Shown: positions 5,918 to 44,266 of the stretch, piece by piece
Layout of the letters: every line of letters begins with the position of its first letter
How positions within the stretch are numbered: position 1 is the first letter of the stretch
DNA from: a virus
Virus record (IMG/VR): IMGVR_UViG_3300046694_000261
Location: 1-44,693 of that record
DNA: 44,693 nucleotides
Strand: one strand, 5' to 3'
Program-made: the position numbers and the translations under genes
Notes under the pieces: model-generated
Told to the model about the DNA's origin: nothing
The model's input: only the letters and a program-made list of their open reading frames with translations
Databases searched by the model: none

Positions 5918-6335
5918 TCGCGTCACTTTTCACGCAATCTTCCGCTATCTCGAACGCGTGCTTGGCCTGCCGGTGGATGAATGGTTGGCTGGCACTGAAC
6001 TGCTGGCAGACCGTGAGCGCGTCGCCATTGCTTGCGAGCGTGCGCGCCTGCCGGTGGATGCCGTTCGTGAACTGATCCTCTCCCGCCCTGTGCTGGCTGT
6101 CGTTGCTGCCGGGTTCAAAGATTGCGTGGTGCGGCTTGATGGCTTCTCCTACGTCATCCGCAACGGCAGGGTTGCCACGGTCATGACGAACTGGATGCGT
6201 GACAGCCAGGTCGGGCAGATCGGGCGCATGAAAGAGCAAACCCGCAGCCAGCTCAAGAAGGATTTCCAGAAAGCGAACCGTCGGTTCCGCGGCAAGCGCA
6301 AGAGCATCCAGCGCCAGATGCAAGAGGTGGACTGA
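5910..6335 (+). CDS. Hypothetical protein with basic C-terminus (141 aa)
   Basis: Starts MLDRVTFHAIFRYLERVLGL at 5910, with GGGAGGA ten bases upstream, overlapping the previous gene in another frame. A helical N-terminus (EWLAGTELLADRERVAIACE) precedes a beta-hairpin-like stretch (FSYVIRNGRVATVMTNWM). The C-terminal ~40 residues are strongly basic (QLKKDFQKANRRFRGKRKS), which suggests nucleic-acid contact. I do not recognise a family. TGATG overlap couples it to the C5-methyltransferase gene. Confidence 0.55.
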   Translation: MLDRVTFHAIFRYLERVLGLPVDEWLAGTELLADRERVAIACERARLPVDAVRELILSRPVLAVVAAGFKDCVVRLDGFSYVIRNGRVATVMTNWMRDSQVGQIGRMKEQTRSQLKKDFQKANRRFRGKRKSIQRQMQEVD

Positions 6336-7090
6336 TGGTCGCCTATTACAACGAAAACAGAAAGTCAGCGGCCAGGATATTGAAACGCCTCGTCGAGGAA
6401 AAGCTAATCCCGGCCGGTGAGGTCGACGACAGGAGCATTACCGATGTCGCAGCGTCCGATCTCATCGGCTTTGACCAGTGCCACTTCTTTGCAGGAATCG
6501 GAGGCTGGCCGCTTGCTCTTCGAATCGCTGGCTGGCCCGATAGTCGACCTGTTTGGACAGGAAGTTGCCCTTGCCAGCCCTTCAGCTCAACAGCCTTTAA
6601 GTCTACCGCCCAACAAGATGAGCGCCACTTATGGCCGGATTTTGACCGGCTCATCAGCGAGTGCGAGCCTGACGAGATCTTTGGCGAACAGGTTGATGAA
6701 GCAGTTGCCGCTGGATGGGTCGATGACGCCTTTCATGACTTGGAGGAAAAAGGTTACGCCTGCGCGACGATCGTACTTCCAGCTCTCAGTGTCGGCGCAA
6801 GCTTTGAAGGCCAGCGGCTTTATTTTGTTGCCTCGACCGCTGGCGACAGACAACCGGGACCGCGGCAATCTCAACAATCCATCGATAATGCGGCGCGTTT
6901 CTTTAGGGAAGCAGATCCACTTATCCATGCATTTCAAGGGAACGCCTTGCCCTATGTGTGTTCTCAGCATGATGGGATACCCACGAAGTTGGCTAGAGAA
7001 TACTTGCACGGAGCCGGCAATGCCATCGTTCCGTTGATGGCTGCAGAATTCATAGGCGCATACCTAGACGAGATGGAGGCGCGGTCTTGA
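6335..7090 (+). CDS. dcm-like: C5-cytosine DNA methyltransferase
   Basis: 251 residues, compact for the family. Motif I is CHFFAGIGGWPLAL, motif IV is TGSCPCQPFSS with the catalytic Cys in PCQ, the motif VI region reads IFGEQV, motif VIII-like QRLYFVAS and motif X GAGNAIVP are present. The enzyme should transfer a methyl group to C5 of cytosine in a short target and so protect phage DNA or alter expression. The opening MVAYYNENRKSAARIL is typical of the phage type that begins YYNE. Third-position GC is low: 19 of 40 codons from 6479 end in G or C. A second plausible reading frame lies inside (6444-7037). Confidence 0.88.
   Translation: MVAYYNENRKSAARILKRLVEEKLIPAGEVDDRSITDVAASDLIGFDQCHFFAGIGGWPLALRIAGWPDSRPVWTGSCPCQPFSSTAFKSTAQQDERHLWPDFDRLISECEPDEIFGEQVDEAVAAGWVDDAFHDLEEKGYACATIVLPALSVGASFEGQRLYFVASTAGDRQPGPRQSQQSIDNAARFFREADPLIHAFQGNALPYVCSQHDGIPTKLAREYLHGAGNAIVPLMAAEFIGAYLDEMEARS
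6444..7037 (+). CDS. Candidate overprinted gene inside the C5-methyltransferase (+1 frame)
   Basis: ATG 6444 has AGGAG at 6431-6435, an eight-base spacer, all inside the methyltransferase gene. The 197-residue product carries recognisable pieces: DLFGQEVALASPSAQQP, MSATYGRILTGSSASASL, SLANRLM, LDGSMTPFMTWRKK, LPRPLATDN and MGYPRSWL. I have seen this order in predicted phage proteins found next to or across C5-methyltransferases. That memory may partly reflect the same overlap repeated in many genomes, not independent genes. The ideal Shine-Dalgarno site, formed by the rare arginine codon AGG, and the reduced third-position GC of the host frame support real coding. Function unknown. Confidence 0.4.
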   Translation: MSQRPISSALTSATSLQESEAGRLLFESLAGPIVDLFGQEVALASPSAQQPLSLPPNKMSATYGRILTGSSASASLTRSLANRLMKQLPLDGSMTPFMTWRKKVTPARRSYFQLSVSAQALKASGFILLPRPLATDNRDRGNLNNPSIMRRVSLGKQIHLSMHFKGTPCPMCVLSMMGYPRSWLENTCTEPAMPSFR

Positions 7091-21806: not shown

Positions 21807-23926
21807 GTTTCAACACGATGGTTATACGCCAGCGTGATTTTTCGGCTGGCGAGATTGATCCGGATTCCGTCCGCCGCGACGATCTGGACATCTTCAAATT
21901 TGGCGTCCGTTATGCAAGAAATCTGCAGACGATGCCGTCCGGAGCGCTGGAACGGCGTTTCGGCCGATCGATGCGATTTGTCGAGACAGGCAGAACAGAT
22001 CAATTCCAGCCCTTCCATGATGGTCTGAAATATTCGCTTAGTTTTGGCGGTGGCTATTTGAGCATTCGAGATCAGAACGATACCGTTCTGCAAACGCTTG
22101 CTGCACCTTGGTCCGCTGATATCGTCCCGAAATTGGTTTGGGATTTCTACGAGAACCGGACCTTTATCTGTGGTCCTGGAATGCGGACGCAGGTGGTTTC
22201 TGTCGATGAAAATTCCAGGCTTTGGTCGATTGCGGATTTTCAATTTGACCGGAAACTCTCAGGTACATATCTCGCGCCGTTCTATCGCTTCGGAAACAAG
22301 GGCGTCACGATGCAGGTCAGCGCCATTAGCGATTCTGGCATCACGGTAACATTCTCCGCAAATGTCCTAAATCCCGCGCATGTCGGTACGATCTTCCGAT
22401 ATGCGGGCCGTCAGCTTCGGATTGATTCTGTTTCCTCCGGAACTGTCGCATCGGCTACAGCGCTGGAGCGCCTGGCACCGACTGTCCAATATGTGTTCGC
22501 GGATTCGACTGAGCTTTATGGTTTTACCGTTGGTGAGACCGCGGAAACCAGCGTCTCAGGGGTCCAGATCGAGATTATTGCCATCGATATCGTCGGCAAG
22601 ACGGTCACTGGTGTCATCCTCAATCAGTATCGCCAGCGCGACCCGTCCGATCGCCTTGTCGGGCCGAACGCTGATGCGAATACAGAGGATATGTCGGTTG
22701 TAACGCCAGGCGCAACGACCCAGTGGACTGAAATTTTCATGTCCGATTATCGCGGTTGGCCGCAGTCGGTTTCTGTCGATGATAACCGGATCATCTTTTG
22801 CGATTTCCCGCAGTTCAAGGCGGCGATTATCTGGTCTGCTGTCGATGATCCGATGAATTATCTCATCGAGGCATCGAGCGATACGAGCGCAATTTTCGAA
22901 TATTTGCAGGCCGATTGCCGGGTCTTCCATGTGGTCGGTGGATACGATGAGTTTGCGATTACGGATCGCGGCGTTTTCTATATTCCAGTCTCGGGCGACA
23001 ATCCTCTCAAGCCTGGATCTGTCGAATTCAACATGCTCTATTCTGGGCGTGTCTCCTCGGTTCGTCCCGTTCAGGTGACGGAAGGCGCGCTTTTTGTTGA
23101 TGATACCGGAACCGGAATCTATGCGATCAGCGCCACGGGTGCGCAATCACGTCCTTATCAGGTCACAGAACTGACGGAAGGGCATCGTCACCTTTTCAAT
23201 GGCATTGTCGCAATCGGTTCAAACGCTGGAACATCGCAGAACGCGAGCCGGCAGATCTATGTGGTGAACGGCGATGGCAGTGTCGTGCTCGGGCAATATA
23301 ATGTCTCGCGGCAATATGTCGGCTGGTTGAAGCATAACGGTCAGGGCATCGTGAAAGATGTCTGCACCCGTTTCGATGAAGCAAAGTTTCTGACTGTCTA
23401 TCCCGTCGGCGCCGGCACAATTTCGGTGGTCGAGGAGAACGATTCCGCGATGAAGTCTGATTGCGCACTTGCCGCCGTTGGCGGTGTGATCAGCAGCGCG
23501 TTCACCGGCGCCACCATGCAGGTGTGGGCTGATGGCTTCTATCTCGGTGATGTCACGATCGGTGCCGGTGGCGCGGTGCCTGGGATCAGCGGGTTCACGA
23601 ACGTCATTGTCGGCTATCTCTTTGTCTGGACCTTGTCGCCGCTCTTCCAGCAGACGGAAGGCGGCAACGACTACAAGCAGAACCTGCGCCGGCGCCGGAT
23701 CGTCAGTGCAGCAGCGCGCGTTGAAGACACTCAGGAATTCCAGATGGGCAGTAGGTTGGTCGCTGGATATGTCGGCGGCGATGATTTTGCGGCGCCGATG
23801 CCATTGCGATCCGACACATACAAGATCCGTGTGCTCGGCAGAGACTTCGACCCGCAGCTTCCATTGCAGCAGACCTTTCCGGGTGAGTTCAAGCTCCTCG
23901 AATTGACAACGGAGATCACAATCTAA
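21803..23926 (+). CDS. Tail nozzle protein, T7 gp12-like (tail tubular protein B)
   Basis: 707 residues. The start MVIRQRDFSAGEIDPDSVRR, followed by ARNLQTMPSGALERRFGRSM, is diagnostic for nozzle proteins of podoviruses (FxxGExxP... xCxNxxxxxxGxxxRRPG). Later WPQSVSVDDNRIIFCDFPQF, NQFAVSD-like YDEFAITDRGVFYIPVSGDN, and LKPGSVEF are also typical. It forms the hexameric tail tube extension that contacts the cell surface and the fibres. Its last codon overlaps the next start. Confidence 0.85.
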   Translation: MSFNTMVIRQRDFSAGEIDPDSVRRDDLDIFKFGVRYARNLQTMPSGALERRFGRSMRFVETGRTDQFQPFHDGLKYSLSFGGGYLSIRDQNDTVLQTLAAPWSADIVPKLVWDFYENRTFICGPGMRTQVVSVDENSRLWSIADFQFDRKLSGTYLAPFYRFGNKGVTMQVSAISDSGITVTFSANVLNPAHVGTIFRYAGRQLRIDSVSSGTVASATALERLAPTVQYVFADSTELYGFTVGETAETSVSGVQIEIIAIDIVGKTVTGVILNQYRQRDPSDRLVGPNADANTEDMSVVTPGATTQWTEIFMSDYRGWPQSVSVDDNRIIFCDFPQFKAAIIWSAVDDPMNYLIEASSDTSAIFEYLQADCRVFHVVGGYDEFAITDRGVFYIPVSGDNPLKPGSVEFNMLYSGRVSSVRPVQVTEGALFVDDTGTGIYAISATGAQSRPYQVTELTEGHRHLFNGIVAIGSNAGTSQNASRQIYVVNGDGSVVLGQYNVSRQYVGWLKHNGQGIVKDVCTRFDEAKFLTVYPVGAGTISVVEENDSAMKSDCALAAVGGVISSAFTGATMQVWADGFYLGDVTIGAGGAVPGISGFTNVIVGYLFVWTLSPLFQQTEGGNDYKQNLRRRRIVSAAARVEDTQEFQMGSRLVAGYVGGDDFAAPMPLRSDTYKIRVLGRDFDPQLPLQQTFPGEFKLLELTTEITI

Positions 23927-24333
23927 TGGACGGCGGAGCAAGCGCAGCACTCATCGCAGGTTCCGGCATTTTGTCCGGCGTCGGCGGCATGGTCGGAAAC
24001 AATCAATCTGCGCAGAATGCGAAGGATCAGGCCGGGCTTGCGCGCGTCCAGGCGAACCAGACCGACACCGCATATCGCGAGGATCTGATGTCGACGATAT
24101 CGAATATCCGCGCGATCCGGGCATCGTCCGGTGTCGGTGCCAATAGCCCGACCGGTCAGGCGATCGAGGAGAGGCAGGCGCAGCTCAGTGATCGAAATCG
24201 CGTCACGGCAGTTACCGGCAAAAGGTTTGAGGCGTCATCGCAAGATCGGGCCGCCGGGGCTTATCAGACCGCCGGGTTGTTCTCACTGGCCGGCGGCGCC
24301 GTCAAGGGTCTCAGCAGTTTGAAGTGGTCGTAA
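23926..24333 (+). CDS. Small ejection protein (T7 gp14-like)
   Basis: 135 residues. N-terminal Gly/Ala-rich hydrophobic segment (ASAALIAGSGILSGVGGMVG) and a helical Gln/Ala-rich middle (QNAKDQAGLARVQANQTDTA), then a second Gly/Ala segment near the end (AGLFSLAGGAVKGLSSL). Such proteins leave the virion first and make a pore in the outer membrane. Position between nozzle and the large ejection proteins agrees with T7 gene 14. Confidence 0.7.
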   Translation: MDGGASAALIAGSGILSGVGGMVGNNQSAQNAKDQAGLARVQANQTDTAYREDLMSTISNIRAIRASSGVGANSPTGQAIEERQAQLSDRNRVTAVTGKRFEASSQDRAAGAYQTAGLFSLAGGAVKGLSSLKWS

Positions 24334-24336
24334 GCG

Positions 24337-27300
24337 ATGGCACGTCTTCCCTCAGTCAATCAGAACCGTGGCATCCTGCAAGCCGATCTTCGCGGTGTCC
24401 CGGCGGACGTAGCAGCAAATCCGTATATGCAGATTGCCAGCGCCCTCGGTGATGTCGGTCAGCGTATCCATAACAGCGAACTCGACACTGCTCAGAAGGA
24501 AGGGTCGAACGCCGTTTATCGAGATGCTGACGGCAATCTTCAGGTCACGCTGAAGGACAACACGACAGACACGGCGCGCACCTATAACCATGCGGCACAG
24601 CTTGGAATGATGGCACGCCTGCAGGGTGATATCCGAACGCAGGGGCAGCAGCAGGCAGACGCCGCGAAGGGCGATCCGGCCGTCTTCAATGCAGGTTGGA
24701 ACACATATCAGAAGGGAATATTGAAGAATACGCCCGATGAGCTAAAGGGCGCCGTGCAGACCCAGCTTGATCAGTATGGCTCGCAATTCAGCTTGGGCGT
24801 CTCCGAGGTGAAGCGAAAGCGTGACATCGGTGTCTTCGAGGCCGACACCAAAGCGGAAGCCCAAAACCTCATGGATGAGATGGCGACCATCGCCAGAGGC
24901 GGCGGCACGAATACGCCAGACTATCAGGCAAAGCGCGGCCAGCTCACATCGCTCTATCAGAACATGGTTTCCAATCCCGATTTCACCATGTCGCAGAAGC
25001 AGGCCGATATCGACCTTAAGCACACAGAATCGCGCAATATGGCGGAAGCCCTGGTCGGAACGGTCAATAAGACCTTGACGGCCGACGGCGTTGTCGCCGC
25101 GCGCAAGCAGGCCGATGGCATTCTGACCGATACCAGTCTGAATCTCTCGCCGGCGGAGCGCCGCCAATACAATGGCATCATGGATGAGACGATCAACGGC
25201 TTCGTCGCGCAGCAGAAGGTTGCCGTGAAGCCATATCAGGATCAGTCCACTCAGGTTCAGAAGCTCCTTGATCAACAAGTTGGGATCGACAACCCAGCAA
25301 TTGACGATCTGATCGGCAATCTTGCACGCGGCGGCGATCCGCAGGGTGCTTTGGCTCTCAGCCAGGCGCGCAACACGGCTCGCGTTATTCGGGACTTCAA
25401 GACGGCCACCCCGGAACAGCGGGTTCAGATTGCTACGTCCGGGTTCTCGGCTGCGAATGGGAATGTACTTAGCGCCATGCGCAATGTCGAAAGCGGCGGC
25501 GATGGAACACAGGTGTCGCGGGCTGGCGCTCTTGGCTCGATGCAGGTCATGCCAGGAACGGGCGAGGAAGTTGCACGGTCCCTCGGTGACAAGAACTTTC
25601 CGTTCAATGGTACCGATGCAGAGAAGAAAGCCTATCTGCAGAAGGATGATGTCAGCGAGCGATATGGCGAGGCCTACTATAACCAGATGCTGCAACGGTA
25701 CGGCGGAGATCAGCAGGCCGCTCTCGTCGCCTATAACGGCGGTCCCGCCCGCGCCGATGCATGGATTGCCAATGGCCGAGACGATACCGTCATCCCAAAG
25801 GAAACCGCAGACTATTACAAGAAGGTGCTGGGGCAAGCGGGTGCGCCAACAGGCCGCACGATGGGACAGGCTGGGCCTTCCGCTTCTCGCGCTTTTCTCC
25901 TGAGCGTGACAGACAAAGGTGAGGCGGCCATTGACGGTTTGCAGGAAGGTTTCGGCAATAAGGTTGCTGCACTCCTACAGGCGGCGCCTCCCGGTATCCG
26001 TGAAAAGCTTGGTGTCTATTCCGCGTACCGAGATGAGAATCACCAGAACGAGCTTTGGCAGGCGGCGCTCAAGAAATATGGTTCAGCCGAAGAGGCACGC
26101 AAATGGGTCGCACCGCCTGGAAACTCAGAACACAATAAGGGTGATGCCGCCGATCTTGGGTACGACGGCAAGAGCCTGAAGGATGCGCCGCCCGAAGTTG
26201 TGAACTGGCTTCACCAGAATGCCGCAGCTTTCGGCCTCAAGTTCCCACTTGGGAATGAGAACTGGCATATCGAGGATTCCTCTACGCGCCAAGGCCGTTC
26301 TATGGTCGGTGGTGCGCCACCTGCCAGCAATGGCCTCGGCGTTCCTCCGGATGCGATCAAGGCATATCGCGAAGGTGTCACTTCCGACGCCAAAGCCTAT
26401 TGGTCCGATATTCAGGATGGCATCAAGAAGGGCTATGCCCCGAATGCGCAGGAGTTTTCGCTCTTTGCTCGCCAGCTTGCGCTTGTCGACGATCCGGGTT
26501 TCAAATCCGAAGTCGGCCGCTTCATGCAGAGCGAGGCAGCTGGCCAGGCCATCGCACAGCTCCCGCCAGAGCAGCGAGCCGCCGTTATCTCGTCGATGCA
26601 GTCGAACGCCACTGATGGCGCCACGCTGGCCCAGCAGGATATTCTCAGCGCTGCAGAGCGATATAACCAGCAGAGCGCGGAAGCCCTGAAGAACGATCCG
26701 ATCGGATATGCGGCACAGCGCGGGTTTGCGAAGGCAGTCCCACCGATCGATGTTTCCGCAGGAACCGATGCTGTATCGGCGGCGCTGGCGGCCCGGCAGA
26801 ACACCGTGAACCTGTTACGCGCCCGCGGCGAAGTCGGCGACATCTCCGCACTTAGCCCGGTCGACAAGACGACGCTGTCTAACTTCGTCCAAACCGCAAC
26901 GCCAGCGGCGCAAGCGGCGATGCTTGGCGCAATGTCGAGCTCTCTCAGCCCCGACACTTTCAAATCGACGATGGCCGATCTTGCTGCGAAACCTGACACC
27001 CGCGCTCTGGCAACCGCCGGGGCGATCTATGCCGAAAATCCGGAAGTGGCTCAGTCCATCATCCGGGGCCGGTCTCTTCTCACGGCAAATCCAAACTTTG
27101 CGCCGAAGAAGACGGACGCGAACACGGCTGACATTGATCAGATCCTTCCGCCGACGGCTTTCGGCGCCGGGCTTGAGGGTGGCCGCCAGCAGCTTCTTGA
27201 AGCGTCCACGGCTCGATATGCTGATCTCTCAAACATGGCTGGCGATACCTCGGCGGAATTCAACAGCACCCGTATGACGCAGGCCATCAACGACGTGACC

Positions 27301-27618
27301 GGCGGAGCTCTGACGATGAACGGTGATACCGTGATCGCGCCGCGCTACGGCATGACTCAGGATCAGTTTGACGGTCTCATGAAGGGCCTGACGCCGGAAC
27401 AGGTTTCCGGCGCTCAGACGGCGGATGGAACGCCGATCACGGCACGAGACATCTATCGGCAGGGCCGGCTCAAAGCAGTGGGTGACGGACAGTACCTCAT
27501 CGAGTTCGGCATTCTCGGCATGACGCCATCCTATGCGCAGAGCGCAGCGGTGCAAGGCGACTCCCGCCTTAGCCGCGTTGCCGGTGGCCCGTTCATCCTC
27601 GATCTCAGGGCGAAATAA
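24337..27618 (+). CDS. Ejection protein with lytic transglycosylase and M15 peptidase domains
   Basis: 1093 residues. Residues ~375-490 are an SLT domain: NVESGG with catalytic Glu385, GALGSMQVMPGTG, and the closing QQAALVAYNGGPARADAW. Residues ~515-650 are a D-Ala-D-Ala carboxypeptidase (M15/VanY) domain: GVYSAYRDENHQNELW, the metal site SEHNKGDAADL (His599, Asp606) and NWHIE (His644). Thus one virion protein carries a glycan-cutting and a peptide-cutting enzyme. The flanking parts are helical and Gln/Ala-rich, as in proteins that unfold to pass through the tail. It should open the wall for DNA entry, like T7 gp16, with an added activity. Confidence 0.88.
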   Translation: MARLPSVNQNRGILQADLRGVPADVAANPYMQIASALGDVGQRIHNSELDTAQKEGSNAVYRDADGNLQVTLKDNTTDTARTYNHAAQLGMMARLQGDIRTQGQQQADAAKGDPAVFNAGWNTYQKGILKNTPDELKGAVQTQLDQYGSQFSLGVSEVKRKRDIGVFEADTKAEAQNLMDEMATIARGGGTNTPDYQAKRGQLTSLYQNMVSNPDFTMSQKQADIDLKHTESRNMAEALVGTVNKTLTADGVVAARKQADGILTDTSLNLSPAERRQYNGIMDETINGFVAQQKVAVKPYQDQSTQVQKLLDQQVGIDNPAIDDLIGNLARGGDPQGALALSQARNTARVIRDFKTATPEQRVQIATSGFSAANGNVLSAMRNVESGGDGTQVSRAGALGSMQVMPGTGEEVARSLGDKNFPFNGTDAEKKAYLQKDDVSERYGEAYYNQMLQRYGGDQQAALVAYNGGPARADAWIANGRDDTVIPKETADYYKKVLGQAGAPTGRTMGQAGPSASRAFLLSVTDKGEAAIDGLQEGFGNKVAALLQAAPPGIREKLGVYSAYRDENHQNELWQAALKKYGSAEEARKWVAPPGNSEHNKGDAADLGYDGKSLKDAPPEVVNWLHQNAAAFGLKFPLGNENWHIEDSSTRQGRSMVGGAPPASNGLGVPPDAIKAYREGVTSDAKAYWSDIQDGIKKGYAPNAQEFSLFARQLALVDDPGFKSEVGRFMQSEAAGQAIAQLPPEQRAAVISSMQSNATDGATLAQQDILSAAERYNQQSAEALKNDPIGYAAQRGFAKAVPPIDVSAGTDAVSAALAARQNTVNLLRARGEVGDISALSPVDKTTLSNFVQTATPAAQAAMLGAMSSSLSPDTFKSTMADLAAKPDTRALATAGAIYAENPEVAQSIIRGRSLLTANPNFAPKKTDANTADIDQILPPTAFGAGLEGGRQQLLEASTARYADLSNMAGDTSAEFNSTRMTQAINDVTGGALTMNGDTVIAPRYGMTQDQFDGLMKGLTPEQVSGAQTADGTPITARDIYRQGRLKAVGDGQYLIEFGILGMTPSYAQSAAVQGDSRLSRVAGGPFILDLRAK

Positions 27619-29996
27619 TGGCTCTCCTCGTCGATCCGACACAGCGCGCGGCCGCAGTTGAATTCGCCGGACAGAACCCCGTTCAGGGGCTCGATCCTGG
27701 ATTTGTCGGTCGGTTTCAAGCTGACTACGGCGCGATGCTTGGCGCCAGCAACGCCAATGCTCGCGAGCTGCAACGTGCCAATATCCAGAGCGAATTCATT
27801 GACAGCTTCTACAAGGAAAGCGGCGTCCGCGTTCGGAACTGGCTCGGCGGTCCCGGCGTCAACCCGATCGCAGACCGCGAGGCTGCGGCGCGCGGTCAGT
27901 TCGACGCTTGGAAGAAGAGCAATCCGGACAGCGAGCTTTTCTTTCCTGAGAACAGCTACATCACCAGTGAAGCACTGAAGCGTTCGCAAAGCGTTTCTGG
28001 CTCTTCGCAGCAGCTTCAACAGAACTCTACTTCCTGGGCATCCTCTCTTGGTGGCTTCGCCGGGACCGCCGTCGGCGCGATGCGTGATCCGCTCAATGCG
28101 ATGACGATGGCTTTCGGCGCTGGTCCGGCCGCCGGAATTTTGCGCACGGCGGCCACTGAGGGTGCTCTCGGCGCCGGTGCGCAGGCACTTGGCACTGGCG
28201 TCTCCTACAATTATCGCCAGCAGGTAGACCCGAATTTCAATCTGAAAACGGCAGCATACGAGGTTGCCGCCGCTGGCGTCGGCGGCGCGGTCCTGGGCGG
28301 CGGACTGAAGGGGCTGGCCGGTCTTTGGGATCGGATCAGAACCGGCGATTGGCCCAGCCACGTCGTCGACGCCGCCAATGTTGTTCAGCGTGAGGCCGCC
28401 GTGCCGTCCTATCGGCAGGATGTGACACCACAGGGAAAAGCCGTCTATCGCGCCACCGTCGATAAGGCGTCCGACGATCTCTTCGCCGGGCGGCCGGTCG
28501 AGCTGCCGCCGGAAGCATTCTTGCAGGCGCAGGCGCGGCCCGGTCGCGTCTATGATGCTGATGGCCGGTCGGTCGGTGTCAGCTATGAGGTCGTTGACGC
28601 GGACTCGCTCACCACATCCCATGCGAACGACATGAGCGTGAACCCGGCCTTTCCGCAGGAGTTGCAGCCGCGCGACCGGACGCGGGCGATCTCTCAGGAT
28701 CAGGTGCAGTCCATTGCCGGCAACTTGCAGCCGGAACGACTCGGGCCGTCGTCTGACGCTGCGAACGGTGCGCCGATCATCGGGCCTGACAATCTGGTGG
28801 AGTCCGGCAATGGTCGCGTGATGGCGATCCGCCGCGCCTATGATACGGGCGGCCCAAGCGCAGACAGTTACCGGAACTATCTCCAATCTCAGGGCTATGA
28901 GATCGGTGACATGGCAAAGCCGGTTCTGATCGCGCGCCGGGTGACTGACCTCTCCGACGAGGACAGGCTTAATTTCGTGACAGCGGCGAACCGCTCCACA
29001 GCGATGCGTCTCGCGCCGGCGGAACAGGCGCTATCCGATGGCCGCATGATCGACGAACCGTTGCTCGACAAGCTACAGGGCGCCGATGTCGATGCGACCA
29101 CAAACCGGGAATTCGTGCGTGGCTTCATGCAGAAGCTGCCACGCGCCGAACAGAGCGAGCTTGTCGATCGGAATGGTGTCTTGTCCCAGCAGGGCGAGCG
29201 CCGCGTCATGGCCGCCCTGATGGGCCGTGCCTACGGCGATCCTTCTCTCCTCGGCCGTGCGCTTGAAGACGCGGACAGCAACATCAAGTCGATTGCCGGC
29301 GCGTTGGGTGACGCGGCCGCACCTTGGGCGAAGATGCGCGATGCCGTCTCTCGCGGGCAGATCCCGCGCGGCATGGACATCACCGATGATCTGCTCGATG
29401 CCATCCGCACCGTCATGAAGGCGCGCGACGAAGGCCATCAGGTCCGCGATCTCGTCAATCAGGGTGAGATGTTCGGCGGTCCCGGCGAGACGGCCAAGAT
29501 CCTTGCGCGTGCCATATATGGCGATGCGAACATGACGAGGGCTGTCAGCCGGAAGCGTCTCGGTGCCTTCCTCAACGATTTCGCCACGGAAGCTATGAAG
29601 AACGATGCCGGGCCTCGGCTATTCGGTGAAGCCCTACAGACCGGCGATGTCCTGCGCACCTCGCTTGCCAAGGCTGGCCGCGAGGATTTGGAAGCCGTGG
29701 CCGCCGAACGTCTGGCGCCCGAAGCAATCGAGAAGATCGCGGCATCTCCGGAGACGGAAGACGCTGTGATCCAGAGCGCCCGCAAGCTGATTGCTGACAA
29801 TGAAGAGCGGCAGCTTGGCCCGATCGGCTCGGCAGCGGAAGGCCCTCGGCGTGAAGCAGAGCCAATCATGATCGATCTCAACGACGGCCGGGGCGAACGC
29901 TCTCTTGATGAGATCATGGAAGAAGCCGACAATGAAATTGCTGCCGCCAAGGAAATTGAGTCTTGCGCAGTCGGTAAGCCGGTAGGGGAAAATTGA
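27618..29996 (+). CDS. Large ejection protein with a DdrB-like ParB domain
   Basis: 792 residues. The N-terminal ~250 are helical with Gly/Ala-rich segments (GGFAGTAVGAMRDPLNAMTM, VGGAVLGGGLKGLAGLW), as in ejectosome proteins. Residues ~318-475 match the DdrB-like ParB domain: VSYEVVDADSLTTSHAND, NPAFPQELQPRDRTRAISQD, LQPERLG, IIGPDNLVESGNGRVMAIRR, KPVLIARRVTDLSDEDRLNF and VTAANRSTAMRLAPAEQAL. That domain occurs in P1 DdrB and in polyvalent proteins that enter the cell with DNA and counter host defence. The C-terminal third is helical. Position fits T7 gp15/gp16-type internal proteins, so co-injection is plausible. Confidence 0.8.
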   Translation: MALLVDPTQRAAAVEFAGQNPVQGLDPGFVGRFQADYGAMLGASNANARELQRANIQSEFIDSFYKESGVRVRNWLGGPGVNPIADREAAARGQFDAWKKSNPDSELFFPENSYITSEALKRSQSVSGSSQQLQQNSTSWASSLGGFAGTAVGAMRDPLNAMTMAFGAGPAAGILRTAATEGALGAGAQALGTGVSYNYRQQVDPNFNLKTAAYEVAAAGVGGAVLGGGLKGLAGLWDRIRTGDWPSHVVDAANVVQREAAVPSYRQDVTPQGKAVYRATVDKASDDLFAGRPVELPPEAFLQAQARPGRVYDADGRSVGVSYEVVDADSLTTSHANDMSVNPAFPQELQPRDRTRAISQDQVQSIAGNLQPERLGPSSDAANGAPIIGPDNLVESGNGRVMAIRRAYDTGGPSADSYRNYLQSQGYEIGDMAKPVLIARRVTDLSDEDRLNFVTAANRSTAMRLAPAEQALSDGRMIDEPLLDKLQGADVDATTNREFVRGFMQKLPRAEQSELVDRNGVLSQQGERRVMAALMGRAYGDPSLLGRALEDADSNIKSIAGALGDAAAPWAKMRDAVSRGQIPRGMDITDDLLDAIRTVMKARDEGHQVRDLVNQGEMFGGPGETAKILARAIYGDANMTRAVSRKRLGAFLNDFATEAMKNDAGPRLFGEALQTGDVLRTSLAKAGREDLEAVAAERLAPEAIEKIAASPETEDAVIQSARKLIADNEERQLGPIGSAAEGPRREAEPIMIDLNDGRGERSLDEIMEEADNEIAAAKEIESCAVGKPVGEN

Positions 29997-32455
29997 TGGC
30001 ATCTCTGATAGCTAACTGCCTTGGCCGGCTAGTATCCGCGCAGCGCATCAGCCAAAAGCAGGCTGATGACGCTCTGGCCCTGCATGAGGGCATTCAGGAC
30101 CGTCTCTATCCCGCTATGCCGCCGGCCGCCGCTGACGCTGCTGGCGCGCTTGAGGCCGCCCGTGTGATGGCACAGGCTGCCCGCGATCGCCAGCTTATGG
30201 CAGCGCATCAGGCGATTACCTATCGGGAAGCGCTCGACCGCATGGATCTTCACCCTGACGGGAAGACGGTCGGCCTGCACAGCATTCTTGTCCGTGACAA
30301 TTACGAGGGCGGCGCGGCGACAGGCAATGCGCTCAATGTCGACGCCCATTCAGAATCCGTGACAAAGCGTCTGCTCGGCTTCATGAACGGGGCGATGGAG
30401 CCCTACGCATCGAAGATGGCCGGTCTCAGCCAGGATACGGAATCCATCTGGAACGTGGTTCGCGAACTCTTCGGCTCCGACAGCGGCGATGATGCCGCGA
30501 AGGCGGCGGCGAACGGCTGGACGGCGGCAACGAAATACGCGGTTGACCGCGTGAAGCAGAGCGGGAAGCGTCTATCCGTGCTGGAAGACTGGCGGTTGCC
30601 GCAGCATTGGGATTCCGGCCGGCTAAAAAAGTTCACGCAGCAGGAGTTCGTCAATGACCTGATGACGGAAGTCGAGGCCGGCAACATGCGCGTCATGGAC
30701 AAGGGCGGCTATGGTGAGGCTCCGAAAGGCGCGGTGCCAGGGATCATCGCCAACGCCTACGACGATATCCGTCTCGCACGCGGAGCTGGCAATGGCAGCG
30801 GCGCGATGTCCAACCAGCTCCGCACCTTCCGTTTCGACGATCCCGAATCCTATATCCGCATGATGCAGAAATACGGCATGGGCAACGGCGGCTTGTACAA
30901 TACGATGATGGGTCACCTCGGCGCGATGTCGCGCGAAATCTCTCTCGTCGAACTGCTCGGCCCGCAATACGAGTCCAATTTCAAAGGCCTGATGAAGGTT
31001 GCGGCCGAAGACGACAAGCTGCGGAACAACACGATCGGCAAGAAGCTGAAGCGTTCCCTCTCGATGAACAGCCCGGCCGCTGTCCAGAATACCTATGACT
31101 CCGTGACTGGAAAGCTTGGCATTCCGCAAAGCGAACTGATCGCTGGTGTCGCCGGCGGCCTGCGCAACATCAAGACGGCGGCTAGCCTCGGATCGGCCGT
31201 GGTCTCCGCGCTGCCTGGCGACAGCATGACGGCTGCGATCGCTGCGAACTACAATGGCATCCCGGCGACGGCTGTTCTCACTCGCTTGGTCCGAGACCTC
31301 ACGACGAACCGCGAAGGTGCGGAACAGCTCGCCCGGCAGATCAACCTTACCGCCCATTCCGTTATCGATCATGCGCTCGGCTCCAAGCGCTTTGCTGATC
31401 AGGTTGTCGGCGACGGGCTGACCGCACGCATCGCAGATACGACCATGCGCGTGACAGGCATCAACGTTTGGACGGAAGGGCTGAAGCGCGCCTGGGCGAT
31501 GGAGTTCAATGGTCTCGTTGCCCGATCCGCTGGCGATGCATTCGACAAACTCGATCCCGCCTTCCGCAGCTTCCTCGATCGATATGGTTTTAGCGCCGGT
31601 GATTGGGACAAGCTGCGGGTGACGCCGCCGATCGAGGCCGATGGCGCCCGTTTCTTCAATGTGAATGCGGTCGAGGATCAGAAGCTTGCTGACCGGCTTA
31701 TGTCGGCCATCATCGACGAGCGGCACTTCGCCGTCATCGAGCCGGATGCTCGTATCCGCGGCGCGATGACGCTCGGCACGAAACGCGGTACGATCCTCGG
31801 CGAAGCAGTGCGCTCGGCCTCACAGTTCAAATCTTTCCCGATGACGTTCATGATGACGCACATCACGCGCGCCGCTATCCAAGACGGCTCGTGGGGCAAG
31901 GTGTCGGCCGGCGTGAAGCTGCTGGCCCTGACGACAGTTGCCGGTGCGGTGACGGCACAGATGCAATCGCTGATCTCCGGTCAAGATCCACTCGATATGA
32001 GCAATCCGCGCTTCTGGCTGACATCGTTCCTGCGCGGCGGCGGTGCTGGTATGGCGGGCGATCTCGCCTATTCCGCCACGACGCGCGGCGGCGACGGCCT
32101 GCTGCAATATGCCGCCGGTCCCGTCATGGGTGAAATCGCCTCGGCGACGGGCGACCTTGCGCAGACGCTCGCGAACAAGGATGTCTATTCCGGCGACAAG
32201 CCTCTGAATGGCAAGATGCTGGCGCAGCACATTAAGGCATGGGTGCCCGGCTCTTCGCTTTGGTACACCAAGATCGCGACTGACCGTCTGGTCTTCGACT
32301 TCATTCAGACGATGGTAGATCCGCACTATCGCGAGTCCTTCCGGCGCTACCAGCGGCGCATGCAGCAGGACTATGGGCAGAAATTCTGGTGGGAGCCGGG
32401 CAAGGTAGCCCCTGATCGAGCACCCAATTTCAACGCTGCGATCGGAAACAAATAG
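29996..32455 (+). CDS. Large internal/ejection protein (819 aa)
   Basis: Starts MASLIANCLGRLVSAQRISQ at 29996 with AGGGGA upstream. Mostly helical, Ala-rich in the N-terminal part (AAADAAGALEAARVMAQAAR), with long amphipathic stretches (LGSAVVSALPGDSMTAAIAA) and hydrophobic ones near the end (VKLLALTTVAGAVTAQMQSL, GGGAGMAGDLAYSATTRGGD). The C-terminus is basic-aromatic (YRESFRRYQRRMQQDYGQKF). No enzymatic motif is visible. By size, order and composition it is the third ejectosome component. A 44-base gap with a late promoter separates it from the fibre gene. Confidence 0.72.
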   Translation: MASLIANCLGRLVSAQRISQKQADDALALHEGIQDRLYPAMPPAAADAAGALEAARVMAQAARDRQLMAAHQAITYREALDRMDLHPDGKTVGLHSILVRDNYEGGAATGNALNVDAHSESVTKRLLGFMNGAMEPYASKMAGLSQDTESIWNVVRELFGSDSGDDAAKAAANGWTAATKYAVDRVKQSGKRLSVLEDWRLPQHWDSGRLKKFTQQEFVNDLMTEVEAGNMRVMDKGGYGEAPKGAVPGIIANAYDDIRLARGAGNGSGAMSNQLRTFRFDDPESYIRMMQKYGMGNGGLYNTMMGHLGAMSREISLVELLGPQYESNFKGLMKVAAEDDKLRNNTIGKKLKRSLSMNSPAAVQNTYDSVTGKLGIPQSELIAGVAGGLRNIKTAASLGSAVVSALPGDSMTAAIAANYNGIPATAVLTRLVRDLTTNREGAEQLARQINLTAHSVIDHALGSKRFADQVVGDGLTARIADTTMRVTGINVWTEGLKRAWAMEFNGLVARSAGDAFDKLDPAFRSFLDRYGFSAGDWDKLRVTPPIEADGARFFNVNAVEDQKLADRLMSAIIDERHFAVIEPDARIRGAMTLGTKRGTILGEAVRSASQFKSFPMTFMMTHITRAAIQDGSWGKVSAGVKLLALTTVAGAVTAQMQSLISGQDPLDMSNPRFWLTSFLRGGGAGMAGDLAYSATTRGGDGLLQYAAGPVMGEIASATGDLAQTLANKDVYSGDKPLNGKMLAQHIKAWVPGSSLWYTKIATDRLVFDFIQTMVDPHYRESFRRYQRRMQQDYGQKFWWEPGKVAPDRAPNFNAAIGNK

Positions 32456-40335: not shown

Positions 40336-41132
40336 TACTCCGCCTCCTCTTGCTCAGGGGCGACGGCGGCGCGCAGGGTGGCATCAAACGCGTTCAGCTC
40401 GGATACTGTGCTGGAATATGCCTGACCGTTTAGAAGATGCGTCACATGCCGAACCTGATTGGCGAATGACTGACCGAGTTTCCGCAACCGTTCGTTCTCC
40501 GCCCTAAGCGCGGCTATCTCTCTAACATAAGAGTTCAGAGCTTGCTCATTGGTAGCGGCTTTTCCCTTTAGGAGGCCATTTTCTTCTACAAGTTCAAGAA
40601 GCTTATCAGTGCGCTCGTCAAAGGCTTTTTGAAGCGCGGCTATCTCGGGTGCGGGCGTGGGGTCGCTTTGGGAGGTGGAGAGAGCGGAGCGCCTGTAGAG
40701 GCCGTTGTATTCAAAGCCAGAGTTGATCGCCGCTTGTTCCGATCTCGTCAGATAAACACCGTTTTCATGGTCCAGCACCTCGAAAGCCGAGGGCTTTACT
40801 TCCAATTTCACGGTCGCTGTCTCTTGCACCGCTGCGGGTGGGGGTGGGGCGGAAAGGGCGCGTATGACTTCAATGGCGCATTGGATATCCTGCCCAATCT
40901 CGGTCGTAGCGCCGCGCTCATCAATATGGCGCTGCAAATCATTAATCAGCGCGATATCCGGTATCGCCCTCTCATGCCGTTCAGCATCGGAGGGGGAGGC
41001 GTAGACCGGGAACGGGTCAGAACCATCAACGGACTTGTCGCCGGGGCGAGCAACCTCGTAGTAGTCCTCAACATCGTCGGGAGCGCGTCGGCCCTGAAGC
41101 CAAACAAGGTGAGCGATCGGTTCATTCGGCAT
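40335..41132 (-). CDS. Ea22-like early protein with coiled coil (265 aa)
   Basis: Starts MPNEPIAHLVWLQGRRAPDD at 41132 after GGAGAAGAACA. The opening EPxAxxxWxxGR, the stretch FPVYASPSDAERHERAIPDI and the later coiled coil (LLELVEENGLLKGKAATNEQ, YVREIAALRAENERLRKLGQ) resemble the Ea22-like early proteins of lambdoid phages, which begin with an EPVAW-like strand, a PLYASP-like motif and a helical tail. Function unknown. It follows a similar protein (41122-41850), suggesting an old duplication. Confidence 0.6.
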   Translation of the reverse strand: MPNEPIAHLVWLQGRRAPDDVEDYYEVARPGDKSVDGSDPFPVYASPSDAERHERAIPDIALINDLQRHIDERGATTEIGQDIQCAIEVIRALSAPPPPAAVQETATVKLEVKPSAFEVLDHENGVYLTRSEQAAINSGFEYNGLYRRSALSTSQSDPTPAPEIAALQKAFDERTDKLLELVEENGLLKGKAATNEQALNSYVREIAALRAENERLRKLGQSFANQVRHVTHLLNGQAYSSTVSELNAFDATLRAAVAPEQEEAE

Positions 41133-41850
41133 TGTTCTTCTCCTGTTGGCCGCTCCGCATTTGCGCGGTTCCTTCTGCAAGCGTATCCAGCCCGATACGG
41201 AGAATGTTGCGCGCAGCGTTAACGTCTCGGTCATTGACTGATCCGCAGTCGTCACACGTCCATTCTCTGACGCTGTAAGCAGTGGACAGCCGCGACCGCA
41301 GATCATCCCGCTCCGTTTCCGCCTTCCGCGCCCGCTCTTCCTCATCCGCCGCAATCGTGACCTGTAGATCACGGCTTGCCTTGATGTTCGCTATTTGCTG
41401 CTCAAGCTCTGCTATGCGGGAGTCGGCGGTGGATTGGAATCCTGCATCAGCCAGAGCTGAGAGGTGGGGAGCGGAGGAGGCACGGAGATTTGCACGAATG
41501 CGGGGTTCGTGGTCAGCCTGAGCTGCTGATTTAGCCTCCTCAAGTGAGGAATACTCGCCACATGCGATACCACGGCGGGTGAGGGTAACAATGCCGTCAT
41601 GCGCCCGCTCAAAGATCATGTAGACCTTCTCGCCATCGGTATCTAACGTGTTATGGAAATTTCCGATGGCGAGAGGTCGGTGCGCATGCCATTCCAGCGG
41701 ATTAATCTCCCATTGCTTCGGCTCACCCGGTAGCAGCGCAAGGGCTGCGGAATAGACTGGCTGGGAATAATATTCATTCTTCTGGAAAGCGACGGTGAAG
41801 CAGCCTTTGCCGTGCATCTCATCGGGGTTGGCGTAACCTATCGGATTCAT
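41122..41850 (-). CDS. Ea22-like early protein fused to the C-terminal zinc ribbon of a TnpB protein
   Basis: 242 residues, GGGAGAGTAAG before ATG 41850. The N-terminal domain (MNPIGYANPDEMHGKGCFTV, SQPVYSAALALLPGEP) resembles Ea22-like proteins, with a coiled coil in the middle (SRIAELEQQIANIKASRDLQ). The last ~45 residues, VREWTCDDCGSVNDRDVNAA then RNILRIGLDTLAEGT, are the end of an IS200/IS605 TnpB: second half of the zinc ribbon and the RuvC-III DRDVNAARNIL motif. The first CxxC and the nuclease core are absent. It appears that an insertion left its 3' end fused in frame. Confidence 0.75.
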   Translation of the reverse strand: MNPIGYANPDEMHGKGCFTVAFQKNEYYSQPVYSAALALLPGEPKQWEINPLEWHAHRPLAIGNFHNTLDTDGEKVYMIFERAHDGIVTLTRRGIACGEYSSLEEAKSAAQADHEPRIRANLRASSAPHLSALADAGFQSTADSRIAELEQQIANIKASRDLQVTIAADEEERARKAETERDDLRSRLSTAYSVREWTCDDCGSVNDRDVNAARNILRIGLDTLAEGTAQMRSGQQEKNNAE

Positions 41851-41851
41851 C

Positions 41852-42934
41852 TTACTCTCCCTCGATCAGGCCGGTGACATAGACGGCGGTCGACTCCGCA
41901 TCTGCCAAGCCTTTCAGGCGGTCGGCATGGGCGCGAAGGATCTTCTTTGCGGTCGCCATGTCGTCGGCCCCAAGCCGCGGCTTGAAGTCATTGTGTGCGG
42001 CCTGCATCTCGTCCGTCTCGATCTCAGCGGCAAGCTTGCCGTGATATTCAGTCAGCAGTTCGCGATTGTGTGCGGGAGCCGGCGCTTGGGAGGAATTGCC
42101 GGCCCCCTGCTCTTCCTGCCGAGGGGTGGCGGCTGGACGAGATTGTGTTGTGTTGGTTTCCCCGCGTGCCCATGCCCGCAGCAGACGACCGCTTTCGGCC
42201 GTGACGCGCTTGCCTGGGGGGAACATGTGCAAATGCTGGCTCTGGATCTTGCCGTAAACGGCCTGACCGTCCTCGATCAGCGGCACGCCGGGATTGTCGG
42301 GCGTGACAGTAAAGCTCATCGTCATCTCGAACATGAAGCGCTTCTCGCAGATCGGCACCCACCCGGCGCTCTGGATCGCGGTTTTCTCCTTGCCCGATCG
42401 ATCATCGATCACCTTGACGAACTTGATCTTCTCTTCGGCGCGCAGGCAGAAGATGATGTAAGCGCGCACCTGGCGCAGCGGCGACATGAAGCGCGTCTTG
42501 TGGCGTGTCTTCGGCACTTTCCACGCCGGGGCGTTGAACTTGTCGATCTCCCAGCCTTCGAGCTTGTCGTACGGCTTGCGGGCAAGTCTCGAGACTTCCT
42601 CGTCGTGCATCTCCTGCAGACCGCCAACGCCTTCGTATTCGTCGGACGTGCTGTCGATGATGATGACCTTGGCGCCGGCCCGTTCCGCCTTCTGGATCGC
42701 CTCGATGTAGGCTTCCGGCGTGAAGGGCGGCCGCATGTCCAGATGCTTGAACTTGAACTGATCGGCATAGTGCAGCATGCGCTTTGCCTCGCTGTCGATG
42801 GCGTAGATCGGCTCGCCCTGGGCAAGGCCGGTCGCCATCGTCAGCGCGGTAAAGGTCTTGCCGCTGCCAGATGCGCCAGCAATGGCAATCAAAAGGCTGG
42901 TGTCGTCTCGGTAGGCATCGGTGAATTCGTTCAT
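41852..42934 (-). CDS. RecA-like ATPase, Sak4-type single-strand annealing candidate
   Basis: 360 residues from ATG 42934, overlapping the previous stop. Walker A: LLIAIAGASGSGKTFTALTM; an AIDSEAKRMLHY stretch; Walker B: GAKVIIIDSTSDEYEG; then a motif RAYIIFCLRAEEKIKF. This is the AAA_24/Sak4-like group found in phage recombination modules next to exonucleases. The C-terminal part has a Gln/Pro linker and a helical end (DDMATAKKILRAHADRLKGL). With the PD-(D/E)XK nuclease two genes upstream it forms the phage homologous-recombination pair. Confidence 0.75.
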   Translation of the reverse strand: MNEFTDAYRDDTSLLIAIAGASGSGKTFTALTMATGLAQGEPIYAIDSEAKRMLHYADQFKFKHLDMRPPFTPEAYIEAIQKAERAGAKVIIIDSTSDEYEGVGGLQEMHDEEVSRLARKPYDKLEGWEIDKFNAPAWKVPKTRHKTRFMSPLRQVRAYIIFCLRAEEKIKFVKVIDDRSGKEKTAIQSAGWVPICEKRFMFEMTMSFTVTPDNPGVPLIEDGQAVYGKIQSQHLHMFPPGKRVTAESGRLLRAWARGETNTTQSRPAATPRQEEQGAGNSSQAPAPAHNRELLTEYHGKLAAEIETDEMQAAHNDFKPRLGADDMATAKKILRAHADRLKGLADAESTAVYVTGLIEGE

Positions 42935-43164
42935 GCTAAAATGCCTTCTGTGATCGGTGTGACGCGGTCGAGCAAATAGCAGCCGGAAATATCTACCAGC
43001 CAAACGACAGCCGAGTGACCGGACAGGACTTCAGCCTTGGAACGCGTGACGGTGATTGAGCCCGCGCCATCATCCTTGCGGACTGAGACCTTTTGGCCGA
43101 CGGGATAGCGCGCATTGAAGGCGTCGCATTGTGCCTGCAGCTTTGCGGGGTTCGGGCGTTTCAT
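42931..43164 (-). CDS. Small beta-barrel-like hypothetical in the recombination module (77 aa)
   Basis: Starts MKRPNPAKLQAQCDAFNARY at 43164. The rest, VGQKVSVRKDDGAGSITVTR and SKAEVLSGHSAVVWLVDISG, ends CYLLDRVTPI, which is the pattern of a small SH3-like protein common between nuclease and ATPase genes of rhizobial prophages. Unknown role, perhaps an accessory to the nuclease. TGATG and ATGA overlaps on either side. Confidence 0.65.
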   Translation of the reverse strand: MKRPNPAKLQAQCDAFNARYPVGQKVSVRKDDGAGSITVTRSKAEVLSGHSAVVWLVDISGCYLLDRVTPITEGILA

Positions 43165-44186
43165 CAGTTCGGCTCCATGATCTGCGGTGATCGATAGGGA
43201 TTGGTTTCGTAGAAGGGCAGCGGATCGAACCCGAGGCCCTGCAGGTATGGGTGCTCGATCTCGCGGGATGACCAGCGTGTATCGACATATGCGGGGCATT
43301 CGGCGTCAACGATCTCGCCGGGGTAGCCGGGCCATTCGTTCTCGGCCTGGCACTTGCGCCACAGCATGAAGGCGGCGCTTGCCATCTTCTCACCGATCAG
43401 CCGGCCGGCATTGTCGACGCGGGCGACGGTGATCTCGAACGGCGGCTTCTGCTCCTGAGTGATGAACAGGAAATCCAGCCGCATTTCGTGCCTGTCGATC
43501 TCGGGGAAGAGATGACGGATGCCGCGCCGATAAAAGCCGTCTTGGAAATGGTACTCGTTATTGTAGATCGCGCGGGCGACCGCGTTCGGCTCAACGCTGA
43601 GTTCCGTTGTCTTATAGTCGATGATGGTGATCCTCGGCCCATCGATGCTCAGGCGGTCCATCCGCGCCCGTGCCCAGGTATCGCCGCACCGGTCGCGCCA
43701 GATCGCCGTGACTTCATTGTAGACGGTGCTGACAACCGGATCGGCAATGTCACGAATGGCGAGATGCGAGCTGGTGGAAAGCACGTTGCGCGCCTTCTCG
43801 ACCATCGTCAGCACCGCCTTGTGGTCCTTCACCAGCAGCGGGATAGCGCCGCGCTCCTGCGCCGCTGCACGCTCTTCCTGGGCGGCCTTCTTCTTGAAGT
43901 CCTTGTAATCGAGGACAACTATTTCCGTCGGCTGCCGCAGCAACATGACATGTGCGGCCGATCCGATATCGCGGGTGCGGCTGTTCTTGTCCTCTTCCTC
44001 GTCATCTTCAGGCTTCGTCAGCCGCGGGTGGGCGACGAACGCATGGCGAGGGGATTCGAGGATCAGCTTTTGACCGATAGACCGGCTAAGGCTCGGCAAC
44101 AGGCACGGATCTTGGTGATAGGCCTGCTCGCTCATGCGATACAGCCCGGGCACGGTCGGGATTTCGGAGTGGATGAGGTCGGTCAT
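43164..44186 (-). CDS. PD-(D/E)XK exonuclease, RecE-like
   Basis: 340 residues from ATG 44186 with GGAG eight bases upstream. N-terminal YHQDPCLLPSLSRSIGQKLI and TRDIGSAAHVMLL are typical of RecE/PDDEXK_12 nucleases, where the second is the GxxxHxxLL-type helix. The active site is visible as ARARMDRLSID with Asp, then ITIIDYKTTELS with Asp and Lys; YHFQDGFYRRGI is the conserved late helix with Gln. It should degrade one DNA strand to prepare annealing, probably by the Sak4-like partner. Confidence 0.85.
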   Translation of the reverse strand: MTDLIHSEIPTVPGLYRMSEQAYHQDPCLLPSLSRSIGQKLILESPRHAFVAHPRLTKPEDDEEEDKNSRTRDIGSAAHVMLLRQPTEIVVLDYKDFKKKAAQEERAAAQERGAIPLLVKDHKAVLTMVEKARNVLSTSSHLAIRDIADPVVSTVYNEVTAIWRDRCGDTWARARMDRLSIDGPRITIIDYKTTELSVEPNAVARAIYNNEYHFQDGFYRRGIRHLFPEIDRHEMRLDFLFITQEQKPPFEITVARVDNAGRLIGEKMASAAFMLWRKCQAENEWPGYPGEIVDAECPAYVDTRWSSREIEHPYLQGLGFDPLPFYETNPYRSPQIMEPN

Positions 44187-44266
44187 GACCGGCTCCAATA
44201 CAGATAGGACAGGCTGCCCAGACCGGAGATAATGCCGATCGCCATTTCAGCGACGATGTACGTCAT
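44183..44266 (-). CDS. Tiny membrane peptide (27 aa)
   Basis: ATG 44266 overlaps the repeat-protein stop, GAGG lies ahead of it, and the TGA overlaps the nuclease ATG. The product MTYIVAEMAIGIISGLGSLS ends YLYWSRS and is one transmembrane helix. Support comes from double overlap and ribosome binding site only. Confidence 0.4.
   Translation of the reverse strand: MTYIVAEMAIGIISGLGSLSYLYWSRS

What the first reader, a model, noticed from the sequence alone, without database searches (positions are those of the whole stretch)
27618..29996. DdrB-like ParB domain inside a virion ejection protein
The gene lies among the T7-like ejection proteins, but residues ~318-475 match the DdrB-like ParB domain seen in P1 and in polyvalent proteins of phages and conjugative elements. 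A virion protein carrying such a domain would reach the host cytoplasm with the DNA, as P1 does with its Dar/Ddr proteins, ready to act before any transcription. Here it seems to be built into the ejectosome itself.
Basis: partly seen in the sequence, partly recalled or inferred. Interest (0 to 1): 0.65.

Follow-up and report, generated by a model that had tools for sequence, protein, structure and literature searches.

The report
Swappable effector slot in ejection protein
A phage protein expected to be injected into the host with the DNA carries a module related to phage P1's DdrB, sitting in a slot where relatives carry other predicted enzymes, and its only cysteine, strictly conserved at its tail end, is matched by a single conserved cysteine at the start of the next ejection protein, which suggests how the cargo is attached.

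Summary
ORF 27618-29996 (792 aa) carries a DdrB-like ParB domain (Pfam PF18763, E 1.4e-36, residues 315-441). Homology to P1 DdrB runs over residues 307-636, and the AlphaFold model matches ParB/Noc/KorB domains. The gene is not T7-type: it is the middle gene of an epsilon15-type gp15-gp16-gp17 ejection module, found in Rhizobiales and Brucella prophages.

What is built in is a cargo slot. gp16 homologues keep an N-terminal region and a short C-terminal tail; between them they carry DdrB-ParB, transglycosylase, zeta kinase, ADP-ribosyltransferase, PBECR nucleases or nothing. Two relatives 93% identical over the first 729 residues differ by a 136-aa PBECR1 nuclease inserted just before the tail.

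Unexpectedly, the ejection proteins are almost cysteine-free. Yet all 192 distinct gp16/gp17 pairs examined, including very divergent pelagiphage-like ones, have one cysteine at the gp16 C-terminus and one at the gp17 N-terminus. I propose a gp16-gp17 thiol (probably disulfide) junction that tethers the cargo; this is inferred, not shown. The domain's activity remains predicted (NTP-dependent DNA binding or nicking); an anti-restriction role is untested. The DdrB domain in virions is known; the defined slot and the two-cysteine rule appear new.

The parts
27618..29996 (+). gp16-class ejection protein (792 aa), cargo carrier with DdrB module
27618..28532 (+). constant N-terminal region, residues 1-305; helical, with hydrophobic stretch at 209-237
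28539..29009 (+). DdrB-like ParB domain, residues 308-464 (Pfam match 315-441; R400, Y418 invariant)
29043..29693 (+). helical part of the DdrB module, residues 476-692, shared with P1 DdrB to about residue 636
29820..29873 (+). slot (residues 735-752) where close relatives have PBECR1, ART or further domains inserted
29874..29993 (+). constant C-terminal tail, residues 753-792
29964..29966 (+). codon of C783, the only cysteine of gp16, invariant in the family
29996..32455 (+). gp17-class ejection protein (PHROG 684); start ATG overlaps the gp16 stop
30017..30019 (+). codon of gp17 C8, its only cysteine, counterpart of gp16 C783
24337..27618 (+). gp15-class ejection protein with SLT and VanY domains, no cysteine
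23926..24333 (+). gp14-class internal virion protein (PHROG 418, weak)
   Evidence: synteny

Best explanation
The gene encodes the gp16-class ejection protein of an epsilon15-type short-tailed phage. It is a carrier with a constant N-terminal region (probably membrane-interacting) and a constant C-terminal tail, and between them sits interchangeable effector cargo; here the cargo is the DdrB-ParB module shared with phage P1. The protein is packaged in the head, leaves ahead of or with the DNA together with gp15 and gp17, and places the DdrB module in or at the host cytoplasm before phage gene expression. There it most likely acts as an NTP-dependent DNA-binding or nicking protein. The tail probably docks gp16 onto gp17 through a bond between the single gp16 C-terminal cysteine and the single gp17 N-terminal cysteine, formed in oxidising surroundings (virion or periplasm) and possibly opened again in the reducing cytoplasm. 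Shown by computation: domain, fold, synteny, slot, cargo exchange, two-cysteine rule. Inferred: virion presence, ejection, cytoplasmic delivery, thiol bond, activity.
For: Domain and fold. Synteny with epsilon15/phiV10 gp15-gp16-gp17. gp16-position proteins carry ddrB-ParB (12 of 50), SLT (5), zeta kinase (4), ART, PBECR3, LPD23. Cargo precedes the tail in near neighbours: L018 and L193 are 679/729 identical, then differ by a 136-aa PBECR1 region, then the tail matches 34/42; PBECR1, ART or LPD23 at or near the same place in L187, L191, L193, L192, L196. On the gp17 tree the DdrB label changes at least 6 times, 4 forced by well-supported branches. Tail cysteine: 43 of 43 DdrB-ParB proteins next to gp17, against 3 of 26 others, and those three have the same tail. 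Two-cysteine rule: 86/86 pairs, then 34/34 and 72/72 in newly fetched sets. Virion precedents: HPy1R, P1 DdrB. Purifying selection.
Against: No proteomics, structure or infection data exist for this phage. The N-terminal homology between the window protein and cargo-free gp16 is weak. Profile comparison of DdrB-ParB with host ParB gave no significant sequence match, so nucleotide binding rests on fold only. No gp16-gp17 complex could be modelled, so the thiol bond is inferred from conservation alone. epsilon15 and phiV10 gp15 also have two cysteines.
Confidence: 0.72

Rival explanations
1. The DdrB-ParB module is structural: it helps pack or thread DNA inside the head or ejection channel (sequence-independent DNA binding, as for the T7 gp16 C-terminal part) and has no enzymatic role in the host.
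For: T7 gp16-C binds DNA and is placed at the cytoplasmic end of the channel (PMC8954989). P1 Dar proteins also act in head assembly (PMC12810830). ParB-fold domains bind DNA (established knowledge).
Against: The module is gained or lost repeatedly among phages with related gp17 and sits beside or in place of clear enzymes, which fits cargo better than a structural need. The same module occurs in giant polyvalent proteins with no gp17 neighbour.
Confidence: 0.2
2. The module is an anti-restriction or anti-defence factor acting as in the P1 Dar system.
For: Homology to P1 DdrB, a component of the P1 Dar group that is co-ejected with DNA.
Against: The cited roles of DdrB in protection are indirect, and P1 DdrB also has a C-terminal metallopeptidase-like region that is absent here (Pfam finds only ddrB-ParB). 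No defence-linked test was possible.
Confidence: 0.25
3. The two conserved cysteines are not bonded to each other: each has a separate role (own homo-oligomer disulfide, metal site, or thiol modification), and the low cysteine content is a general adaptation of proteins that unfold and pass an oxidising compartment.
For: T7 gp15/gp16 and P22 gp7/gp20/gp16 have no cysteine, so depletion is general. gp14-like proteins of T7, epsilon15, phiV10, Piluca, TPWB-05 and YeP5 keep a single cysteine at position 2.
Against: Depletion explains the missing cysteines, not why exactly one is kept in each of two neighbouring proteins at facing termini in all 192 pairs.
Confidence: 0.4
4. The cysteine codons are kept by an RNA or translation constraint at the gp16/gp17 gene junction rather than by protein function.
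For: The two codons are only 53 nt apart in the window and the genes overlap.
Against: Both cysteines persist when the genes are 64-525 nt apart (24 loci), and both TGC (47) and TGT (33) are used.
Confidence: 0.02

Closest known systems
DdrB-like ParB domain of polyvalent proteins (Iyer et al. 2017, PMC5512222; Pfam PF18763), prototype phage P1 DdrB
   Same: Same domain family; the homologous stretch continues into a helical region; encoded among late virion genes. Iyer et al. already noted a lysozyme-DdrB-ParB fusion in Acinetobacter prophages.
   Different: Here it is inside a defined ejection protein with constant ends; no metallopeptidase region. That paper does not mention epsilon15 or ejection proteins.
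epsilon15/phiV10 gp16 (Uetakevirus) and Alcaligenes phage Piluca gp16-like protein
   Same: Same position between gp15 and gp17; C-terminal tail with a single cysteine. Piluca and Acinetobacter phage TPWB-05 gp16 also carry ddrB-ParB, plus a transglycosylase.
   Different: epsilon15 and phiV10 gp16 lack the DdrB module; in the window the transglycosylase is on gp15 instead.
Helicobacter phage HPy1R gp12, DdrB-ParB protein
   Same: DdrB-ParB protein of a short-tailed phage, found in virions by mass spectrometry (PMC9319048 Table 2).
   Different: Much larger (199.6 kDa). Relation to the gp16 class not established; the likely homologue in KHP30 (ORF11, 1633 aa) has no cysteine and no such tail.
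T7 gp16
   Same: Analogous role assigned to ejection proteins that reach the host cytoplasm (PMC8954989); cysteine-free.
   Different: No sequence match found, and in T7 the transglycosylase is on gp16.

Membership tests
DdrB-like ParB domain (PF18763) | Profile score above the curated cut-off | tested here: met
   125.7 bits against 27.6, E 1.4e-36
DdrB-like ParB domain (PF18763) | ParB/sulfiredoxin fold | tested here: met
   AF2 pLDDT 90; nine best chains all ParB/Noc/KorB, Z 6.8-8.7 over 91-99 residues; Foldseek top four ParB/Noc but E 0.05-0.1. Middling Z, so supportive rather than decisive alone
DdrB-like ParB domain (PF18763) | Conserved pocket arginine, and a tyrosine in an extra helix before the last strand (Iyer et al. 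2017) | tested here: met
   R400 and Y418 invariant in 32 sequences and in 64; Y418 lies in helix 413-424 before strand 435-441. Assignment of these residues to the paper's is mine
DdrB-like ParB domain (PF18763) | NTP-regulated DNase or nucleotide-binding activity (predicted in the literature) | not testable with these tools
   No biochemical data; no significant profile match to host ParB
epsilon15-type gp16 ejection protein | Gene position between gp15 and gp17 homologues | tested here: met
   gp17 = PHROG 684, E 2e-142, tblastn to epsilon15 gp17 7e-26; order as in epsilon15
epsilon15-type gp16 ejection protein | Constant N-terminal region | tested here: inconclusive
   Strong within the family, but window to members without ddrB-ParB only E 8e-7 to 0.002
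epsilon15-type gp16 ejection protein | C-terminal tail with single cysteine | tested here: met
   C783, the only cysteine
epsilon15-type gp16 ejection protein | Present in virions and ejected | not testable with these tools
   No proteomics for this phage
T7 gp16 family | N-terminal transglycosylase on gp16 | tested here: not met
   Pfam finds only ddrB-ParB in this protein; SLT is on the upstream gp15
P1 Dar anti-restriction system | DarA/Hdf head proteins that bring in DdrB | not tested
   Neighbouring genes scanned show none, but the whole window was not searched for DarA/Hdf

The most novel reading that the evidence does not exclude
Epsilon15-class ejectosomes use a redox latch: the lone C-terminal cysteine of the cargo carrier gp16 bonds to the lone N-terminal cysteine of gp17 in the virion or periplasm, and reduction in the cytoplasm frees gp16 with its effector. 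The carrier is otherwise kept free of cysteine, so that a slot in front of the tail can accept many different effectors, of which DdrB-ParB is one.
Probability: 0.4. Interest if true: 0.82.

Novelty: new variant of a known kind. Interest (0 to 1): 0.62.

Why it matters
It turns scattered predictions of injected phage effectors into a defined, recognisable delivery slot: any protein encoded just before gp17 whose end carries this tail is a candidate injected effector. The two-cysteine rule is a simple, strict signature across very divergent phages, including pelagiphage-like ones, and points to a junction that can be tested with a non-reducing gel. If the tail is the loading signal, it could help find new anti-defence or host-takeover proteins.

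Tried and rejected
Nucleotide search of phage records: no match. Profile-profile comparison of DdrB-ParB with host ParB: no significant match (the ParB set held wrong-strand frames, cleaned). Pfam at E up to 10 shows no PF02195. Sequence search of solved structures with the window protein, the DdrB-module, gp17 and gp16 profiles: no meaningful match. Fold search with the full-length model against PDB: only one weak ParB hit; the N-terminal region found no known fold in this search, which is not evidence of a new fold. A scan with phiV10 gp16 returned only near copies. A very divergent gp17 alignment could not be used for a scan. RNA-junction cause of the cysteines rejected. Three gp16 picks in the first gp17 scan lacked the tail cysteine (L029, L076, L094); I judged them wrong ORF picks (gap 1013 nt; 258 aa; gap 390 nt) and left them out without proving it. 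Papers on epsilon15 ejection proteins (PubMed 24286036, PMC3164490) are not held.

Full report
CHECK. The ORF 27618-29996 is open and codes for 792 aa. Pfam finds one domain, ddrB-ParB, E 1.4e-36 at residues 315-441. In annotated phage records the best relatives are Acinetobacter and Alcaligenes phage proteins (38-41% identity) and P1-type DdrB (34%, E 7e-42, residues 307-636). The relation to P1 DdrB therefore covers the ParB domain and a helical region behind it (alignments). The domain evolves under strong purifying selection, dN/dS 0.06-0.10 against two close relatives.

FOLD. With 64 sequences in the alignment the region 300-701 folds at mean pLDDT 90. Foldseek's four best PDB hits are Noc and ParB, at weak E-values. 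After re-alignment the nine best chains are all ParB, Noc or KorB N-domains (Z 6.8-8.7, rmsd 2.3-3.4, 91-99 residues), ahead of unrelated helical chains. By sequence alone the link to host ParB is not detectable. The invariant residues include Q350-P351-R352, G397-N398, R400 and Y418. Iyer et al. 2017 describe a pocket arginine and a tyrosine in an extra helix as marks of this family; R400 and Y418 fit, by my assignment.

WHERE IT SITS. The genes around it are gp14-, gp15-, gp16- and gp17-class ejection proteins in the order of epsilon15 and phiV10. gp17 is PHROG 684 (E 2e-142) and matches epsilon15 gp17. Prophage copies lie in Brucella tritici and a Rhizobiales genome. The module is thus epsilon15-type rather than T7-type; epsilon15 ejects internal proteins on infection according to a review (PMC8954989).

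A CARGO SLOT. gp16 of phiV10, YeP5, HB2107, Piluca, TPWB-05 and APEC share an N-terminal region and a C-terminal tail, while the middle differs. Among 50 proteins at the gp16 position (a few of them possible ORF mis-picks), 12 carry ddrB-ParB, 5 SLT, 4 zeta kinase, and single ones ART, PBECR3 or LPD23. In the window's own lineage PBECR1, ART or LPD23 regions are added between the DdrB module and the tail. The cleanest case is L018 against L193: gp17 94.8% identical, gp16 679/729 identical, then 136 extra residues holding a PBECR1 nuclease domain in one of them, then 34/42 identical in the tail. Which state is ancestral is unknown. On a gp17 tree of 86 phages the DdrB label needs 6 changes, at least 4 forced by supported branches. 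Some long branches there are uncertain.

THE TAIL AND THE TWO CYSTEINES. All 43 DdrB-ParB proteins directly before gp17 have a cysteine in the last 20 residues, against 3 of 26 others. Those three carry the same tail: two run close to the contig end and one had its gp17 start misplaced. Counting cysteines gave the surprise. In 86 distinct gp16/gp17 pairs, gp16 always has the tail cysteine and in 80 it is the only one. gp17 always has a cysteine near its N-terminus, and in 81 it is the only one. gp15 has none in 71 of 75. I then tested the rule on newly fetched sets: 34 of 34 BcepC6B-like pairs and 72 of 72 pelagiphage-like pairs, the latter with exactly one cysteine in each protein. The phages Greip, Skadi-3, HTVC100P, BUCT708, BcepC6B and epsilon15 agree. 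Pairs are not independent of each other, but the sets differ widely in sequence. An RNA-level cause is unlikely: the rule holds with gene gaps up to 525 nt and with both cysteine codons. T7 gp15 and gp16 and P22 gp7, gp20 and gp16 have none, and DdrB-ParB proteins without a gp17 neighbour have 2 in 85,953 residues. So depletion looks general, and the retained pair is special to this class.

MECHANISM. Most likely gp16 is packaged, ejected with gp15 and gp17, and carries the DdrB module to the host cytoplasm. Precedents: P1 DdrB is co-ejected with DNA (PMC12810830), and the DdrB-ParB protein of Helicobacter phage HPy1R is well covered in virion mass spectra (PMC9319048 Table 2). The tail probably docks on gp17; a disulfide between the two lone cysteines, open again in the reducing cytoplasm, is the simplest reading but is inferred. 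The module's activity is unknown; NTP-dependent DNA binding or nicking is the literature prediction, and anti-restriction is possible.

NOVELTY. The domain, its presence near virion genes and the idea of injected polyvalent proteins are known. I found no account of the constant-ends slot in the epsilon15 gp16 class or of the two-cysteine rule, within a limited open-access library; subscription papers were not searched.

Noticed in passing
window 24337-27618: gp15-class ejection protein combines a transglycosylase SLT domain with a VanY-type peptidase domain; in Piluca and TPWB-05 the transglycosylase is on gp16 instead.
   Followed up: partly
L277 (T7), L179 (epsilon15), L012 (phiV10), L009, L010, L014: gp14-class proteins often begin Met-Cys and have no other cysteine (T7, epsilon15, phiV10, TPWB-05, Piluca, YeP5); window, Greip, K300 and HB2107 homologues have none.
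   Followed up: partly
L180-L259 without gp17 neighbour: Giant DdrB-ParB polyvalent proteins have almost no cysteine (2 in 85,953 residues); low cysteine content may mark injected phage proteins in general.
   Followed up: partly
L011:2946-5558: Escherichia phage vB_EcoM_APEC gp16 has a degraded ddrB-ParB domain (QPR and GNGR motifs changed), suggesting loss of function there.
   Followed up: no
window 41852-43003 and 43164-44198, minus strand: RecA-like AAA ATPase (weak Pfam hits) next to a PD-(D/E)XK nuclease, probably a recombination or replication pair.
   Followed up: no
window 41122-41850, minus strand: 242-aa ORF with a C-terminal match to the Cas12f1-like TNB domain (E 1.6e-7, short stretch).
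   Followed up: no
window 6335-7090: C-5 cytosine-specific DNA methylase domain (E 1.6e-11).
   Followed up: no
PMC8954989 Table 1 against L179: The review lists epsilon15 ejection proteins as gp11, gp12 and gp13 with sizes that do not fit NC_004775, where gp13 is 154 aa and the ejection module is gp14-gp17.
   Followed up: no
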